DNA from: Candidatus Absconditabacterales bacterium
GTDB lineage: Bacteria > Patescibacteriota > Gracilibacteria > Absconditabacterales > Absconditicoccaceae
DNA: 43,245 bases
Direction of reading: 5' to 3'
NCBI GenBank assembly: GCA_937958645.1
Contig: CALGNI010000008.1
Span: 1 to 43,245 of the forward strand
Part shown: piece by piece, positions 23,495-42,967 of the stretch
Layout of the letters: every line of letters starts with the position of its first letter
How positions within the stretch are numbered: the stretch's first letter is position 1
Translations under genes and position numbers: made by a program
Notes under the pieces: generated by a model
Told to the model about the DNA's origin: nothing
Seen by the model: the letters and a program-made list of their open reading frames with translations, nothing else
Database searches by the model: none

Positions 23495-26400
23495 TTATGC
23501 CTTATTTTCTTCTTCTTTCCTAATAAGTAAAGTCGGCATTGATACTCTTCATTTAAGAAGCCCACCATTTAGTACTCAAGTTTCTGGAAGATAAGCAGGT
23601 AATTGAAGTGGTTCTGGCATAGGAACCTGCTCATATCTTGGTTGAGGGATAAATGGTAGTTCAATCTCAACTGGTTCTGGCTCTTGTATGATCACGACAG
23701 GTGTTGGTGTTGGTTCAACTATTGGAGTTGGAATTTCAATATAACAGTTACTACTGCATCCATCACCATTAATAGTATTACCATCATCACACTGTTCTTT
23801 TATAGTAGGATCACCATTGTGTCAGATGATTCCATCTCCACATCGACTTTCAATTTGACATACTTCTGGATCTTCTTCAACAGGATCTACTACAGTTTCA
23901 AGTTGACAATTCCTACTACATCCGTCTCCATCAACATAATTTCCGTCATCACACTGCTCTCCTCTAGTAACACTCAGGTTTCCATCTCCGCAGAAGTTTC
24001 TTCCTCATCCACTTCCTCATCAACCTCTACCTGATCTTCTTAATACCTCGATATTCTCTACATCATGATCATCTTCATCATTGGATGAATTATTAATTAC
24101 ATCATCAACAACTACATCATTTGATGATGAACTATCTACAGTACTATCAACGTCGTTACCGTCATCTCTTGTTATTTCTGCAATATTTTCAACATCACCA
24201 ACGAATGAAGAACTAATCGTAAAGGTGATAGTTTCTGATTCACTATCTCAAGCTACTATCGATCCGAAATCAAGAACGATTTCATCATCAGTTTCTGAAA
24301 CTACAGACGCAGATGAACTAACATAAGTAAGTCCATTAGGAATATAATCAGTTACTTCAATAGAACTAGCATCAATATCTCATTGATTAAATACTGTGAT
24401 CGTGTAGATAACTTGACCACCTTGAACAAAAGTACTTGAATTAGATGTTTTTCTCAAAGCAAGATCATAGTCATTAGATCCTGTAGTAGGATTTGTTACA
24501 ACTATAGTCTCAACATCATGATCATCCTCGTCATTACTTGCATTATTAAGTTCGTCATCAATAAGTATGTCATTTGCACTATTTGTATCAGGTGTACTAT
24601 CTACATCTTCACCATTATCAGCACTAATTTCTGCTATATTATCGATAGTTCCCGTAAATCATGCATTTACTGTAAAGGTAATAGTTTCAACCATATTAGT
24701 TCATGCAACGAGTGATCCATAATCCAATACTACAGTAGTTGCATTATTAGAGATCACTGGAGCAGTACTACTAGCGAATGTCAATCCTGTAGGAATATAA
24801 TCAATTACTTCGATTCCTGCAGCATCTTCTGTTCCTTGGTTATATACTGTAACATCAAAGGTCACCGTGTCTCCTGGATTGAATGTTCAGGTTGTTGAGC
24901 TATTTAGTCCCTTAGTTAAAGCAAGATCAAATTCCATAGTTTCTGGATCTATAACAGTAATAAGTGCATTATCATCATCATCTTCATCTTGACTTCAATC
25001 TCCTGGTGTACTATCTACATCAACTCCATCATCTGTATAAATTTCTGACCAGTTTTCAATCACTCAAGTAAATCAGTCATCAATGATGAAGCTAATTGTT
25101 TCTGTCTCACTTCAACCAACAGTAATTGGTGAGAAATTAAGTGTAACATCTCCATTTGCCAATACTTGATATCAATTAGATCATACTGATGAACTTAAGA
25201 ATGTAAGTCCTGTTGGAACATAGTCTATTACATAGACATCCAAAGCGTTTTCATTTGATTCATTCAGAACCGTTAAGTCGAATGTAACCGTATCTCCTGA
25301 CTCAAATGGACCTGTTGTACTAGAATTCAACACTTTCATCAATGCTAAATCGTAAGAAGTACCTCCACATTGTTCGTCAAAAAAACCATCACAGTCATTA
25401 TCTAATCCATCTTCACATATTTCATTACCTGGTGTTCATTCTACTGCGCTACATGATCCTAATTCATATTTACCATTTATACAAGCCTTCGGCTGTGTTC
25501 CTGTCGCAAGACACTCACCTTGACCAGCAGAACAATCTACTACCTCATCAGTTCCTTCGTCAATTTCACCATCGCAATCATTATCAATTCCATCACAGAT
25601 TTCTGCTCCTGTATCAACACATACTACTTGTGTAACAGTAATTGATTCGATATCATGATCATCTTCATCACCACCGTTATTATTAATAACATCGTTTAGC
25701 AATGTATCATTAGATGGATCTGAATCAGTTGTACTATCGATATCTGCTCCATTATCTGCAGTAATTTCTGCTATATTATCTAAAGCAGTTCCTGTAAAGC
25801 TAGAGTCAATAATAAAAGTAATAGTTTCAGTTCTTGAAGCTCAAACTGCTAATGAACCAAAATCTAATGAAACTTCAGTAGATGAGGTAGAAACAGTATT
25901 TAAGCTACTTGAATCAAATACCAATCAAGCTGGAATATAGTCAGTCACCACAATCCCATTTGCATTTAGATCTCCTTGATTAATTACCGTAATATCAAAC
26001 GTAACTGAGCTTGAAGGAGCAAATGTACTTGAATTGCTCGCATTAAGTGTTTTTTGAAGAGCTAGATCAAATTCATCAGTATTTGTTGTGTCATCGATAA
26101 TAGTAATAGTTTCTCAATCATCATCATCTTCATTTGTACTATCATTTCCTTCAGTACTATCAGTATCATTTCCATTGTCAGTAAGTACTTCTGCCAAGTT
26201 CGTGATAGACATTCAAATAAATCCTCCATTTACTCTCATCGTAACTGTTTCAGTTGATGATGATCAAGCTGGAATATTTGCAAAGTCAATAATTACATCC
26301 GTTCAACTTTGAGTATACGTTGAAGAAGAGTCTACAAATGTAAATCCTGCTGGGACATAGTCAATTACAGTAAACGCTCCTGAAGGAACATTACCTTCAT

Positions 26401-29400
26401 TAGTTACAGTTATTGCAAATTCAACATCTTGTCCAGTAATATATGGTCCACTTGTTACGATATCTTTAACCAACGCTAGATCATATGTTGTTGGATTCAC
26501 TGTTTCAATAATAATATTTGCATTATCATGATCATCTTCATCTCATCATGTGTTATCAATAACATTGTTGATCAAAACATCATTATTCACAAGCGTATCA
26601 GTAACACTATCAACATCATTTCCATCATCAGATGAAATTTCTGCGATATTTTCAATCGTACCGTTCGCTCCTGCATCTACTGTAAAGGTAATAGTTTCTA
26701 AAACATTACCATTAACTGGGATAGTTGTAAATCATAAAGTAACATCTGTAGAAGTTACTGCTATTTCAGTCGCAGAAGTACTTACATACGTAAGACCAGC
26801 AGGAATATAGTCAGTTACTTCAACATTATTTGCGGCAACAGATCACTGGTTTATTACTCTTATATTAAACGTTACTGTATCTCCTGGAGCATATGTAGAT
26901 GTCATTCTTGTTTTTCTCAATGCTAGGTCATAAGTATCTGTAGTTACATCGATCGCAATTGTTTCATCGTCATCATCATCTTCATTTGTACTATTATCAC
27001 CCGGTGTGCTATCTGTATCGTTACCATTATCAGTCATTACTTCAGCATTATTTGTAATACTTGATCCTGTAAATCCTGCATCTATAAGCATGCTAACAGT
27101 AATTGTAGCAGACCCTCAAACTTGAATTGATGGATAGTCTAACACGAGATCAGATCATACTAAAGTATATGATGCTGCATTAGTTCAAGCAAAACTAAAT
27201 CCTGCTGGGATATAATCAACCACAGTAAATGTACCAGATGGTACAGTTCCTTCATTAGTAACGGTTATATCAAAATCAACAACATCTCCTGGTGCGTAAG
27301 GTCCTGCAGTAGCAATATCCTTAGACAAAGCAAGATCATACACTGGATTGATTGGATCAATAATCGTTATAATTGCATTATCATGATCATCTTCATCTCA
27401 ACCAGTATTATCAATTACATTGTTAACAAGCACATCATTTGATATGTTTGTGTCAGTAGTACTATCAATATCATTCCCATCATCAGATGAAATTTCTGCT
27501 TTATTATCAATCGTTCCTGTGAAATTATTATCAACAGTAAAGGTGATAGTTTCAAGCACTGATCCTCCAACTGGAATCATTGGGAATCATAACGTAGCAG
27601 TTGTTGCTGTAGTAGCAATTTCTGTTGCTGAAGTACTTACATACGTAAGTCCAGCTGGAATATAATCAGTTACTTCAACATTATTGGCATTAACCACTCC
27701 TTGATTGAATACTCTAATATTGAACGTTACTGTATCTCCTGGAGCATATGTAGCTGCCATTCTTGTTTTTCTCAAAGCAAGATCATATCCATTTGGCACA
27801 ACAATTGGGTCAACAATAATTGACTCGATATCATGATCATCTTCATCACCTCCGGTATTATTTATTACATTATCCACCAATACATCATTGGTTGAATCTG
27901 TATCTGTTGTACTATCAATATCTGCTCCATCATCAGCAGTAATTTCTGCTAAATTATCTATTGTTCCTGAGAATCCTGCATCAATTGTAAATGTAATAAC
28001 ATGACCTTTTGAACCTGGTGCAATAGTACCAAAGTCTAATTCTACAAAATTTGCTGTAGATGAAATCACTGATGCATTACTTGACACAAAAGTCAATCAA
28101 CTAGGAATATAATCTGTTACTACAACATTGTTAGCAGTCACTGTACCTTGGTTGAATACTCTTATATCAAATGTAACTGTATCTCAAGCTGTAAATGGAC
28201 CTTGAGTAGTATGATGCAATATTTTTCTCAATGCTAGATCATATGTATCTACTACAATTATAGGATCAACTACGATACTTTCGATATCATGATCATCTTC
28301 ATCACCTCCATTATTATTTATTACATTATCTACCAATACATCATTGGTTGAATCTGTATCTGTTGTACTATCTACATCGTTTCCATCATCAGCTATAATT
28401 TCTGCTAAGTTATCAATCGTTCCTGAGAATCCTGCATCAATTGTAAATGTAATAGTTCTTGTCTTAGCAGCTCATGCTGCGATTGAACCAAAGTCCATCG
28501 TTACGCTTGTCGCTGTATTTGCAATTGCTGCATTACTACTTACATAGGTCAATCCTGCTGGTATATAATCCATTACTTGGATACCACTAGCATCAATATC
28601 ACCTTGATTAATTACTCTCACATTGAAGGTAACCGTATCTCCAGCCATAAATGGTCCTGGAGTGTTACTATTTAGTATCTTTCTCAAAGCAAGATCATAT
28701 TCATCAGTTGATACAATCGGACCAACTACAATACTTTCGATATCATGATCATCTTCGTCACCTCCATTATTATTTATTACATTATCTACCAATACATCAT
28801 TGGTTGAATCTGTATCTGTTGTACTATCTACATCGTTTCCATCATCAGCTATAATTTCTGCTAAGTTATCAATCGTTCCTGAGAATCCACTATCAATAGT
28901 AAACGTAATAGTTCTTGTCTTAGCAGCTCATGCTGCGATTGAACCAAAGTCCATCGTTACGCTTGTCGCTGTATTTGCAATTGCTGCATTACTACTTACA
29001 TAGGTCAATCCTGCTGGTATATAGTCCATTACTTGGATACCATTTGCATCAATATCACCTTGATTAATTACTCTCACATTGAAGGTAACCGTATCTCCTG
29101 CCATAAATGGTCCTGGAGTGTTACTATTTAGTGTCTTTCTCAAAGCAAGATCATATTCATCAGTAGATATAATTGGATCAACCGTAATTGATTCAATATC
29201 ATGATCATCTTCGTCACCTGCATTATTATTGATTACATCATTTACCAATATATCATTAGATGAGTTTGTATCTGTTGTACTATCTACATCGTCTCCATTA
29301 TCTGATGAGATTTCAGCGAGATTATCAATCGTTCCTGAGAATCCACTATCAATAGTGAATGTAATAGTTCTTACTTTTGAACTTCATGCAAGAACAGCTC

Positions 29401-31150
29401 CAAAATCAAGGTCTACTGAAGTTGCAGTAGTTGAAATTGTTGTTGCATTACTTGATACGAAAGTCAATCCTGTAGGAATATAGTCAGTTACTACAATGTT
29501 TGCAGCATCAACGTCACCTTGGTTAAATACTCTTATATTGAAAGTAACCGTATCACCAGCCATAAATGGTCCTGGAGTAGTTCCGCTCAATGTTTTTCTC
29601 AAAGCTAGATCGTATGTATCAACTGGACAAGCTACTTCATCAATATCTCCATCACAGTCATTATCAATTCCATCATCACAGATTTCTGCACTAGGAGTTC
29701 ATTCAACTGCATTACATGCATATGTTGATGGTTGACCATCTTCGCATATTTTTCATCTAGTACCAGTAGCAGCACAAGCCCCTACTCAAACTGTACATTC
29801 TTGTACTATATCAAGATCTTCATCTATTTCATCATCACAGTCATTGTCAATTCCATCACATATTTCTGGTGTTGAAACACAAAGACCTCATCAACCACAT
29901 GGATCAGGAACAGAACAAGAAGAAGCTGATCCTCCATTAGTTCAACTACAAGTCCAGGTGTCAGCTATATTACAGGCCGTTTGATTATAATTTCATGCAG
30001 TACCATTCGTACAAGAACCAAAGACTACGCCACAAGTTCCATCAGTTCCACTACATAGATCTGGGTTTGAACAAGAAGCAGTTGCTCCTCAACCTGAACC
30101 CGTACATGACCATGTATCAGCCTGATTACATGCAGTATCATTTACCCCAACTGCAAATCATAAAGTACAGGTTCCTGTAGCAGTACCACAAACTCAAGGA
30201 ATTGGATTTCCTCCTCCACAAGAATCGTTATGAGCACAAAAAGCAGTTGTACCACCATTTGATCATACACATTCCCATGTATCATTTTCTGTACATACGG
30301 TGTCATTAATATTATTTGCTGTACCTGTATCACATTGTCCAACCGTAAGTCCACAATCACCATTTACTGGTGTAGGTGAACATACATCTGGAATCATACA
30401 CCATGCATCAGTTCATCCATTCGTGCCGAAACAATCCCATGTGTCATCTTGACCACATGCTGTATCATTTGGATTTCCAAAATTTCATGCAGTACAAGAT
30501 CCAAAAGTAGAACCACAAACAGCATTAGTTGGAGTTGTTGTACAAACATCTGGCACTGAACATGAATCACTTGATCCTCCATTAGAGCCTTCACAAGTCC
30601 ATGTATCATCAGTTCCACATGCTGAATCATTTCGATTAGCAGCTTGACCGGTTACACATACTCCATATGCATTTCCACAATCTCCATTTACTGGTGGAGT
30701 TGCACAAACATCTGGAATCATACACCAAGCATCAGCTCAACCATTTACACCAAAACAATCCCATGTATCATCTTGACCACACGCAGTATCGTTAGGGTTT
30801 CCTGGATTACCGACAGAACATGATAAGAATCATGATCCACATACAGCATCAATAGGTGCTGATCCAGAACATACTGGAAATCCACTTGAATCATCACAAG
30901 TTTCTCAAGCAGCACACGCAAGTGGATTGCTACAGAGTCAATTAGAATTACAGACATCTGAGGTACATACAATACCATCACTACAATCTGCATTAGTCAC
31001 GCACTCATCTCATGCGTAAACTGTTTGAACTGAATTTGTATTCCCGTAGTTATCAGAAGTCGTATCTGACATCAAAGGAATAACTCTAAACGCATCTACA
31101 AAAAGCATAGCTGCTAGTACGATACGTAAGAATGTGTTTGCACTTTTCAT
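23495..31150 (-). CDS. Giant DUF11-repeat surface protein with LPETG sorting motif, 2551 aa
   Basis: A continuous frame with UGA as Gly. Order: signal segment (residues ~8-22); Cys-rich modules with repeats like GQDDTWDC (~40-440); two motifs of the [16 protein letters not shown] kind (MopE-like, probably Ca-binding); then twelve DUF11-type repeats, each opening with YDLAL or FDLAL (~513-2350). A further MopE-like pair lies between repeats near 25370-25620. After a Gly-rich linker come two CDDGN...GDGCS..C repeats (~2370-2470), a Pro/Glu stalk, and LPETG at 2521-2525. The last 26 residues lack a clear membrane helix. Likely a cell-surface adhesin or stalk processed by the downstream sortases. 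Confidence 0.92.
28260..29171 (-). repeat. Near-identical tandem 456-bp DUF11 units
   Basis: Two adjacent repeat units inside the surface-protein gene, each 152 codons, differ at only a few positions over most of their length. The other DUF11 units are clearly more divergent, so this duplication is recent. Confidence 0.85.
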
Positions 31151-32161: not shown

Positions 32162-32192
32162 ACACCACTTCTAGTGGTGTTTTCTTTTTCTA
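32162..32192. terminator. Shared convergent terminator
   Basis: Stem ACACCACT/AGTGGTGT followed by a T-rich run on the + strand. The stop codon TAG of the convergent ArfB-like gene (32171-32173) lies inside the hairpin. Confidence 0.8.
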
Positions 32193-32530
32193 CGATGATG
32201 CAAATGATCAAAAACAAGCTCTTTACCAAGATTTTCAAGAAGGATCTTGTAATGTTTCTTGAGTATCGATAAGTTTTGATGATAGTTCCTTTGCTCCTGA
32301 CACGTTAATCTAATCACTCATTTTTTACTAATATGATTGTGATAAGCATCATGGAGCCATAACTTTTGCTCTTCATCAAGCTGCTTACAGGAATCAACAC
32401 TAAAATACCCTTCAGCCTTTGTTTCTCTTTTATTTACATTTTGCCCTCAATGTCCGCCACTTCTCGAATGTTTCCACTTGATAGAATGAGCAATAATCCA
32501 TTCAATATTAGCTTCAGTTAGATTTTTCAT
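32171..32530 (-). CDS. arfB: ArfB/YaeJ-like peptidyl-tRNA hydrolase (ribosome rescue, RF-1 domain)
   Basis: 119 aa. The release-factor GGQ loop is present as SGGHGGQNVNKRETKAEG near residues 23-40, followed by a short domain and a very basic tail (HHRRKRKHH), as in ArfB, which enters the empty mRNA channel with its tail and frees stalled peptidyl-tRNA. There is no codon-recognition domain, so it is not RF1 or RF2. The first Gly of GGQ is encoded by UGA (tga ggg caa). The start is taken at 32530; a longer frame to 32638 would run into a repeat element and is unlikely. Confidence 0.88.
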
Positions 32531-32598
32531 AGATTTGCGTGGAAAATAAACATATATATTATACACACAAAATAACTTTATGTCAAATATAGATCTGG

Positions 32599-32836
32599 TA
32601 ACTGCTCGCAAGTATGTATAGCATCGATACACCAACATTGCTAATTAGCATAACTATGCTCACTTCTTCATTTTTGGCATAGGCCCAAAACCGAAGCAAA
32701 AAAACCCTAGTCGGTCCGCGTCCCGCTCGGCGGCCGACGACCCTTCGTTGATGTTACGTGTGGTAGCGGAACGCAACGGGAGAATGTTTCGATATATACT
32801 CTATAGTAATTAGCATTATACTCTTGTGAGCAGTTA
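32599..32836. mobile_element. 238-bp GC-rich MITE-like element, copy 1
   Basis: Terminal inverted repeats TAACTGCTCGCAAG and, on the other strand, TAACTGCTCACAAG. A GC-rich core near 32709-32790 contrasts with the AT-rich genome and can fold through GTCGG/CCGAC and CGTTG/CAACG stems. A second copy of identical length lies at 37415-37652. No ORF of transposase size, so it would be non-autonomous. Confidence 0.8.
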
Positions 32837-41489: not shown

Positions 41490-41870
41490 CTATATACCCA
41501 AAATTCTCATCGTAAATTTATGCATAGCTATTAGGGTTCTTTCAGCATTTTTTCTATGTATTTCAATAAGGTCTTCTTGGTCTTTTGATCATCCAGTTCG
41601 TTGTATTTCTGGAGAAGCTGCAACGACATATCCATCTCTTCACCTATTATCAGCATGAGCAAGCAATCATCATATATTTAACTGTTTATCAAATTTTTCC
41701 ACATTCTGGGAAACGATTTCAAAAGTTAGTGGGTTAATTACCAACTCAATATATACCAAAATACGAGAAACTCTATCATCAAGAACTCTCGTCTGCTTAA
41801 TCACATTAACTTCGGAATATGGTCAATCTACTCACCGTAATTTTTTGCTTTGTTCTTTTGTAAGTTTCAT
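41490..41870 (-). CDS. Hypothetical protein, third gene of the Panacea operon, 126 aa
   Basis: MKLTKEQSKKLRG to TAG, with five or more UGA-encoded Gly (for example LNIGGLLAH and QRTGGSKD). Mixed alpha/beta; no known motif. It lies 60 bases downstream of the toxin-like gene in the same direction and may belong to the same transcript. No function assigned. Confidence 0.6.
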
Positions 41871-41930: not shown

Positions 41931-42329
41931 TTAGTCATCCTTTATACTTCTGTGTATAATATCTTTCTCAAACTTTCTAACAAACTTACTTTCTAGTATT
42001 TTCTTCTTTATTTCTTCACAAATTTCAGAAGGTAATTCTCACTGATAATCAGCAGAATAACTAAGGAAATCATCTTCAGAAGTATTATAAATATTATGAA
42101 CTACCAAAAGAGTCTCTAATGGGAAAAATTCCAATGTTCATTCCTGGATAATTACATATTGATCTTCAGAAAGTATTCAAACATATTTTTCAACCTTACT
42201 TGTGGCTAGTAAATGTAAAAAATAGTAGTAATTTTCACCTGGAGAAGTCAAAACTACTGCAAATTTATCTTTATGAGTTCAATCCTCAAAGCCAAAATCA
42301 CTTAACCTAAAGACATCTCAAAACTCCAT
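41931..42329 (-). CDS. Putative toxin paired with a Panacea antitoxin, 132 aa
   Basis: Its ATG overlaps the stop of the Panacea gene in a TAATG arrangement. The N-terminus, MEFGDVFRLSDFG followed by KDKFAVVLTSPG, loosely resembles the beta-barrel start of MazF/PemK-type toxins. The C-terminus (EEIKKKILESKFVRKFE) is helical and basic. The toxin call rests mainly on its pairing with an antitoxin-type gene; the fold match is weak. It could also be an unrelated partner. Confidence 0.55.
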
Positions 42330-42907
42330 TACTTAGTGAAACTCATAGCATATAAACGGGTATAGTCAGAATAGGTCTCTTTGACGATAGATTGTAAATC
42401 TTTATTCTGCATATCTAATGATATGTCCACAGTCTTATGCTTTTCAGCTTTATCCCAGGCTCATCATTCTTTGTGAGTGATACTTGATAATTCTGTTGCA
42501 CTTTTCATTCAGTATTTTTTTACTGTCATGGCAAATACTTCTTTATCAATATCGGTTAGATAATCATTATTATATTTTCAAATAGCCTGAAATGAAATCT
42601 GTCTTATTGGTACTCAATAATCATCTTGTCCTATATGTTTCTCCGTAGTCTGAAAGGGTGTTTCACTATGCCTATGCTGTTCGTTTTTTTCAATTACTAA
42701 CTCTACATAATCTTTAATTGCTACTGGCACCGGTCAGTACTTATCTTTTAGAAAAACATCTTGAATAATTAATTTTCAGTATGTATCAGCCATCAAAAGA
42801 TTTGCAAACCAAAAAAGCTTGAAGATTTTAGTCTTACCAATCTCAAAATTGTTTTCTTTCATTATAGTACATAAGTACAATAATTGGTTTTCGATTAGAT
42901 TATTCAT
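42329..42907 (-). CDS. Panacea-domain (DUF4065, SocA/GepA-like) protein, likely antitoxin
   Basis: 192 aa. KIFKLFWFANLLMADTYG and FLKDKYGPVPVAIKDYV match the Panacea (DUF4065) core, and LSSITHKEGGAWDKA matches its conserved C-terminal LS.lTH...W motif. Panacea proteins serve as antitoxins to many unrelated toxins and occur on prophages as GepA. UGA supplies Gly in DTYG and KYGPVP. It is preceded by a consensus promoter and coupled to a downstream toxin-like gene, the expected antitoxin-first order. Confidence 0.85.
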
Positions 42908-42938: not shown

Positions 42939-42967
42939 ATTATACATTTATTTTTTAATCTTGTCAA
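42939..42967 (-). promoter_or_regulatory. Consensus sigma-70 promoter of the Panacea operon
   Basis: Perfect TTGACA and TATAAT on the - strand with a 17-base spacer, 32 bases upstream of the ATG. It is the strongest promoter match in the window. Confidence 0.8.

What the first reader, a model, noticed from the sequence alone, without database searches (positions are those of the whole stretch)
41931..42907. Panacea (PanA-type) toxin-antitoxin-like operon with a possibly new toxin
A DUF4065 protein, known as a versatile antitoxin domain, overlaps (TAATG) a 132-aa partner with only weak similarity to MazF/PemK. It has a perfect TTGACA-17-TATAAT promoter. Toxins paired with Panacea are diverse, and ones from a code-25 host are largely unexplored.
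Basis: partly seen in the sequence, partly recalled or inferred. Interest (0 to 1): 0.7.

Follow-up and report, generated by a model that had tools for sequence, protein, structure and literature searches.

The report
Panacea antitoxin with MazF-fold toxin
Two overlapping genes in a bacterium that reads the stop codon TGA as glycine very probably form a toxin-antitoxin pair in which a "Panacea" antitoxin restrains an RNA-cutting toxin of the MazF fold; this is an ordinary member of a widespread known kind, but the small unknown gene next to it belongs to an undescribed family that recurs beside unrelated toxin and defence genes.

Summary
In detail: a Panacea (DUF4065) gene (42907-42329, minus strand) overlaps by TAATG a 132-aa partner (42329-41931), behind a perfect TTGACA-17-TATAAT site. 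Single-sequence searches of the partner find nothing. However, 65 of 80 related Panacea genes, collected by their Panacea sequence alone, are followed at once by partners of one alignable family. A profile of 50 of these, built without the window's protein, matches it end to end (37.6 bits; best of 200 shuffles 5.4). AlphaFold with that alignment gives pLDDT 87, and the best solved structures are all MazF/Kid/CptN type RNases. The partner is therefore not a new toxin kind. It is a divergent MazF/PemK-fold PanT, like the P. moraviensis and B. ruminantium toxins already validated with Panacea. One twist is that a lysine replaces MazF's catalytic arginine across the family. Four TGA codons fall on near-invariant glycines, which confirms code 25. 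The new point lies next door: gene 41870-41490 belongs to an undescribed 126-aa family. Ten of the 11 members found in CPR-type genomes lie beside or in the same cluster as TA or restriction genes (Panacea-PanT twice, AbiEii, Fic, Bro-N/HsdS, RelB-like). Toxicity and neutralisation are untested.

The parts
42939..42967 (-). sigma-70 type promoter, TTGACA-17-TATAAT, ending 31 nt before the panA ATG
   Evidence: 12/12 match; 2 perfect sites in the window against 0.04 expected by chance
42329..42907 (-). panA: standalone Panacea (DUF4065/SocA_Panacea) antitoxin, 192 aa, code 25 (7 TGA), no HTH domain
   Evidence: PF13274 54.1 bits; AlphaFold pLDDT 92.6; GPVP, KxxKxxxF and H motifs conserved in relatives
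42329..42331 (-). TAATG stop/start overlap of panA and panT (probable translational coupling)
   Evidence: sequence; relatives have starts -40 to +13 nt from the panA stop in 64 of 65 cases
41931..42329 (-). panT: 132-aa MazF/PemK-fold protein, probable ribonuclease toxin, code 25 (5 TGA, the first at codon 4)
   Evidence: 37.6 bits to a profile of 50 Panacea partners that excludes it; A4 profile matches MazF chains in the PDB, E 0.003; AlphaFold pLDDT 87.4; Foldseek top 50 all MazF/Kid/CptN type toxins
41490..41870 (-). third gene, 126 aa, 60 nt downstream on the same strand; undescribed family (here called X126) that recurs beside unrelated TA and restriction genes; membership in the operon uncertain
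   Evidence: no Pfam, NCBIfam or PADLOC match and only a weak PHROG match; 11 members and their neighbours

Best explanation
A type II toxin-antitoxin operon of the PanAT kind. From one strong promoter the cell makes PanA (a standalone Panacea antitoxin) and, by coupled translation across TAATG, PanT, a MazF-fold protein that most likely cuts RNA. PanA binds PanT and holds it inactive. When PanA is lost or its Panacea domain senses a trigger (stress, phage, loss of the locus), free PanT cleaves RNA and stops translation. Shown here: gene layout, domain, conserved pairing, co-inheritance, homology and fold of PanT. Inferred from relatives: toxicity, RNase activity, direct neutralisation, trigger.
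For: Panacea domain and TAATG overlap. The Panacea-led scan brought 80 loci, of which 65 carry a partner of one family at the panA stop. PanA and PanT distances correlate over 51 pairs (Mantel r 0.87, none of 2000 permutations above 0.18). The window's partner, left out of the profile, scores 37.6 bits over residues 2-125 (best shuffle 5.4); two further partners that lie directly behind a Panacea gene and were not in the profile score 41 bits. The family profile hits MazF of known structure (E 0.003), one member hits Pfam PemK_toxin and two hit a PHROG named MazF-like growth inhibitor. The fold model matches MazF/Kid chains (probability 1.00, TM about 0.55-0.65). The MazF catalytic Arg25 aligns with K22, which is K in 35/37 and R in 2/37 relatives; Thr48 aligns with T43/S44. 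Lys in place of that Arg is known in M. tuberculosis MazF4 (PMC7354611). PanT toxins predicted as EndoA/PemK/MazF RNases stop protein synthesis and are neutralised by their PanA (PMC8832971).
Against: No toxicity, cleavage or binding data exist for this pair. Arg to Lys at the main catalytic position could mean altered or lost RNase activity. The window protein reaches no curated family cut-off. The partner was not found in close relatives (1 of 59; only G000 in its genus), so the pair is sporadic. In the published survey 8 of 25 selected PanTs were not toxic in E. coli (PMC8832971).
Confidence: 0.77

Rival explanations
1. PanT is a MazF-fold protein that has lost RNase activity (catalytic Arg replaced by Lys across the family) and now blocks growth by binding RNA, ribosomes or another target, or serves as a sensor or scaffold with PanA.
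For: K at the Arg25 position in 35 of 37 relatives and N at the Thr48 position in 33 of 37.
Against: Lys at this site occurs in an M. tuberculosis MazF (PMC7354611); the window's protein keeps T43 and S44; MazF-like PanTs inhibit translation like MazF (PMC8832971).
Confidence: 0.15
2. The pair works as an abortive-infection (phage defence) unit, with the Panacea domain as phage sensor, rather than as a plasmid-style addiction module.
For: Panacea is proposed to be a sensor (PMC10440598); the neighbouring X126 gene family recurs beside AbiEii, Fic, Bro-N and type I restriction genes.
Against: No phage of this host is known to us and PADLOC has no hit. Not exclusive of the main explanation.
Confidence: 0.35
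3. A functional three-gene module panA-panT-X126, in which X126 modulates the toxin or antitoxin.
For: Same strand, 60 nt gap; in G523 (L164) an X126 member lies 98 nt before another panA-panT pair of the same kind.
Against: X126 lies beside quite different TA and restriction genes elsewhere; 65 panAT pairs were found without looking for it; a weak promoter-like site lies in the gap (9/12).
Confidence: 0.2
4. Chance neighbours with no functional link, or a degenerate remnant.
For: Pair not found in near relatives.
Against: Both frames intact with conserved residues, TAATG overlap, perfect promoter, and the same pairing in 65 of 80 relatives.
Confidence: 0.03

Closest known systems
PanAT systems with MazF-like PanT (Pseudomonas moraviensis, Bifidobacterium ruminantium; Kurata et al. 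2022, PMC8832971)
   Same: Panacea antitoxin in tandem with a small protein that has no database domain hit but a MazF/PemK/EndoA-like fold
MazEF / PemIK (type II)
   Same: Toxin fold: MazF chains are the best structural matches and the best PDB profile matches
   Different: Antitoxin is Panacea, not MazE/PemI; Lys instead of catalytic Arg; C-terminal G-x-L motif conserved in this family; below the Pfam cut-off
SocAB (type VI)
   Same: Panacea/SocA-type antitoxin domain
   Different: NCBIfam SocA equivalog scores 21.6 against a cut-off of 190; partner is MazF-fold rather than the replication-blocking SocB
HTH-Panacea + PemK pairs of the same bacterial family (L003, L004, L016, L018, L021)
   Same: Panacea gene overlapping a PemK_toxin gene (47.8 and 50.3 bits for L004 and L021)
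   Different: Those antitoxins carry an N-terminal HTH-like stretch and their toxins are canonical PemK; the window pair is a separate branch

Membership tests
PanAT toxin-antitoxin (Panacea) | Panacea domain above the curated cut-off | tested here: met
   PF13274 54.1 bits, cut-off 25.7
PanAT toxin-antitoxin (Panacea) | small partner gene adjacent or overlapping, pairing conserved across species | tested here: met
   TAATG overlap; 65 of 80 relatives with a same-family partner at the panA stop
PanAT toxin-antitoxin (Panacea) | partner toxic, Panacea protein rescues | not testable with these tools
   needs expression of recoded genes
PanAT toxin-antitoxin (Panacea) | direct PanA-PanT complex (type II) | not testable with these tools
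   no complex prediction available; co-inheritance only (Mantel r 0.87)
MazF/PemK toxin superfamily | MazF/PemK SH3-like barrel fold | tested here: met
   model pLDDT 87.4; Foldseek top 50 all MazF/Kid/CptN type toxins, E from 2.7e-4
MazF/PemK toxin superfamily | Pfam PemK_toxin (PF02452) above cut-off | tested here: not met
   no hit for the window protein; 1 of 38 family members hits at E 0.00059
MazF/PemK toxin superfamily | catalytic Arg (Arg25 of B. subtilis MazF) | tested here: not met
   Lys22 at that position by two profile alignments; K 35/37, R 2/37; Lys has precedent in M. tuberculosis MazF4
MazF/PemK toxin superfamily | catalytic Thr (Thr48) | tested here: inconclusive
   T43/S44 at the end of strand 3; register uncertain by one or two residues
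MazEF system | MazE/PemI-type antitoxin | tested here: not met
   antitoxin is Panacea
SocAB system | SocA equivalog model above cut-off | tested here: not met
   21.6 bits against 190

The most novel reading that the evidence does not exclude
The 126-aa gene directly behind panT (41870..41490) founds an undescribed protein family (X126) that is a shared accessory part of many unrelated toxin-antitoxin and restriction loci in Patescibacteria/CPR-type bacteria, for example a common regulator, chaperone or second antitoxin plugged into PanAT, AbiE, Fic and type I restriction modules.
Probability: 0.35. Interest if true: 0.6.

Novelty: new member of a known kind. Interest (0 to 1): 0.33.

Why it matters
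The pair extends a well-defined Panacea/MazF-fold TA branch to a bacterium with a reassigned stop codon and shows, with alignment and fold, what the "unknown" partner is. It also yields a testable chemical point: a whole family of MazF-fold proteins with Lys in place of the catalytic Arg. Because the toxin frame has TGA at codon 4, the toxin cannot be made in standard-code cells, so spread to or from ordinary bacteria requires recoding. The X126 family, if functional with its neighbours, would be a new general component of TA and defence loci in the CPR, where such systems are little studied.

Tried and rejected
Single-sequence searches with the partner: Pfam, NCBIfam, PHROGs, PADLOC, PDB, phages, plasmids, viral contigs, 59 relatives and 380 phylum genomes gave nothing credible; the hits to kinetochore NKP1, SLIDE and quinolinate synthase are short and chance-like. 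The tRNA-synthetase hit of the Panacea protein (E 0.004, below cut-off) was rejected. Foldseek with the Panacea model gives no significant PDB match, which also serves as a contrast to the MazF result. Partners of L043, L044 and L047 (nearby Panacea hits in the phylum) do not match the family profile. Mbov_0400 (NCBIfam hit of four family members) has no paper in the library. Relatedness to the validated P. moraviensis and B. ruminantium PanT could not be tested because those sequences were not reached (empty). No X126 relative turned up in plasmids, phages or viral contigs.

Full report
What is there. The window is a whole contig (G000:C8, 43,245 bases) of a genome whose genes are read with TGA as glycine. 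At its right end, on the minus strand, lie panA (42907..42329, 192 aa) and a 132-aa partner (42329..41931) that overlap as TAATG. A perfect TTGACA-17-TATAAT site sits at 42967..42939; such perfect sites are expected 0.04 times in the whole window and occur twice. panA is a Panacea/DUF4065 protein by Pfam (54.1 bits, cut-off 25.7), without any other domain; its AlphaFold model is confident (pLDDT 92.6). Code 25 is not just assumed: TGA codons encode glycines that are invariant or nearly so in relatives, G58 and G44 of Panacea and G4 and G97 of the partner.

The partner looked like an orphan. No library or collection gave a credible match from its sequence alone. I therefore collected its relatives through the antitoxin. 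A small alignment of standalone Panacea proteins was used to scan 84,980 genomes, and the best 80 loci were taken. Nothing in this scan used the partner's sequence; the seed alignment did, however, include three Bacteroidota Panacea genes whose MazF-like partners I had already seen, so the sample leans towards that branch. At the panA stop, 65 of the 80 loci have a gene of 75-171 aa belonging to one alignable family, with starts between -40 and +13 nt of the stop in 64 of the 65. This count uses a profile trained on part of the same set, so it is descriptive. The independent test is the window protein, which was left out: it scores 37.6 bits (E 8.6e-10 for 10,000 sequences) over residues 2-125, against 5.4 bits for the best of 200 shuffles. 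Three further members turned up in the phylum: one in G042 (L146) and one in G523 (L164), both directly behind a Panacea gene, and one in G411 (L147) without a Panacea gene detected beside it. The distance matrices of Panacea and partner correlate strongly over 51 pairs (r 0.87; largest of 2000 permutations 0.18), so the two genes travel together.

What the partner is. The 38-sequence profile finds MazF of known structure in the PDB as best hits (E 0.003, about 95 positions). One member reaches Pfam PemK_toxin, the only Pfam family matched, and two reach a PHROG named MazF-like growth inhibitor. The AlphaFold model of the window protein (pLDDT 87.4, pTM 0.80) has MazF, Kid or CptN type chains as all of its 50 best matches in the PDB (probability 1.00, TM-scores about 0.55-0.65 by query length). 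It is thus a divergent MazF/PemK-fold protein and not a new toxin kind. Two profile alignments place Lys22 at the catalytic Arg25 of MazF; it is Lys in 35 and Arg in 2 of 37 relatives. Thr48 falls on T43 or S44. Both residues are needed for MazF activity, but Lys at the Arg site is known in an M. tuberculosis MazF (PMC7354611).

How it most likely works. Kurata and colleagues (PMC8832971) showed that Panacea proteins neutralise many unrelated toxins by complex formation, and that two PanT toxins with no domain hit but a predicted EndoA/PemK/MazF fold block protein synthesis. In standalone Panacea antitoxins the domain itself neutralises, and it may act as a sensor (PMC10440598). By analogy, PanA here holds PanT inactive and its loss or a trigger frees an RNase. 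Layout, pairing, homology and fold are shown here; toxicity, cleavage, binding and trigger are inferred.

Context in the family. Fourteen of 49 family genomes carry Panacea genes. Their partners are varied: canonical PemK (L004 and L021 over 47 bits) and several families without Pfam hits that look RelE/ParE- or HigB-like by eye, the latter upstream of panA. The window's genome has a second, HTH-like-bearing Panacea locus (L012). This fits the published promiscuity of Panacea.

The third gene. Sixty nucleotides behind panT, on the same strand, lies a 126-aa gene (41870..41490) without a Pfam, NCBIfam or PADLOC match and with only a weak PHROG match. Profile searches of the class and phylum found 10 further convincing members, 28-48% identical to it, with invariant G13, G16-P17, S19, D31, S35, I45-N46-P47, T49, F60, G77, G80-Y81 and H117. 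Their neighbours are striking: AbiEii toxin directly upstream in two genomes; Bro-N and type I restriction specificity genes in two; Bro-N and a RelB-like gene in two; Fic in one; another Panacea plus MazF-fold partner in one (L164, order reversed); an AbiEii-like nucleotidyltransferase on the opposite strand in one; DUF488-like and unknown genes in one. The 10 genomes hold only 9 Panacea genes in all and one to eight AbiEii hits where present. With about 1,000-1,400 genes per genome (my estimate), about 0.02 adjacent Panacea cases and 0.04 AbiEii cases would be expected for randomly placed genes, against 2 and 2 seen. Defence genes cluster, so part of this is shared residence in defence islands rather than function. 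The family was not found in phages, plasmids or viral contigs and has no solved relative. I rate this as the more novel part of the locus, but its role is unknown and its membership in the operon is not shown.

Verdict. Its interest is modest; the neighbouring X126 family deserves its own look.

Noticed in passing
window 41490-41870 (-); L154, L155, L159-L166: Undescribed 126-aa protein family (X126). Ten of 11 members lie beside or in the same cluster as Panacea/PanT, AbiEii, Fic, Bro-N, RelB-like or type I restriction genes in CPR-type genomes; no Pfam, NCBIfam or PADLOC match was found.
   Followed up: partly
L012 (G000:C32:20212-20487) and L006, L010, L014: A second Panacea locus in the same genome: a Panacea gene with an HTH-like N-terminus, preceded by an overlapping or close 140-160 aa gene that looks HigB-like; the same layout occurs in relatives.
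   Followed up: no
L007 (G035) 1420-2078: Standalone Panacea gene followed only by a 31-codon ORF where the partner should be: apparently an orphan antitoxin with a broken toxin.
   Followed up: no
A4 members: Four members of the partner family match NCBIfam ICE_Mbov_0400 (Mycoplasma bovis ICE protein, E down to 4.9e-5), suggesting that this unknown mycoplasma family may also be MazF-like.
   Followed up: partly
window 32171-32638 (-): RF-1-domain protein (ArfB-like size, 155 aa) in a code-25 genome; the only other perfect TTGACA-17-TATAAT site of the window (32558-32586, -) lies inside the start of this ORF, so the true start may be further downstream.
   Followed up: no
L043, L044, L047: Standalone Panacea genes in other CPR families followed by 126-137 aa partners that begin with a MazF-like FGDV/FGTI stretch but do not match the PanT profile; possibly another PanT family.
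   Followed up: partly
window 23495-31150 (-): A 2551-aa open reading frame (56 TGA) next to a DUF1616 gene; not examined.
   Followed up: no
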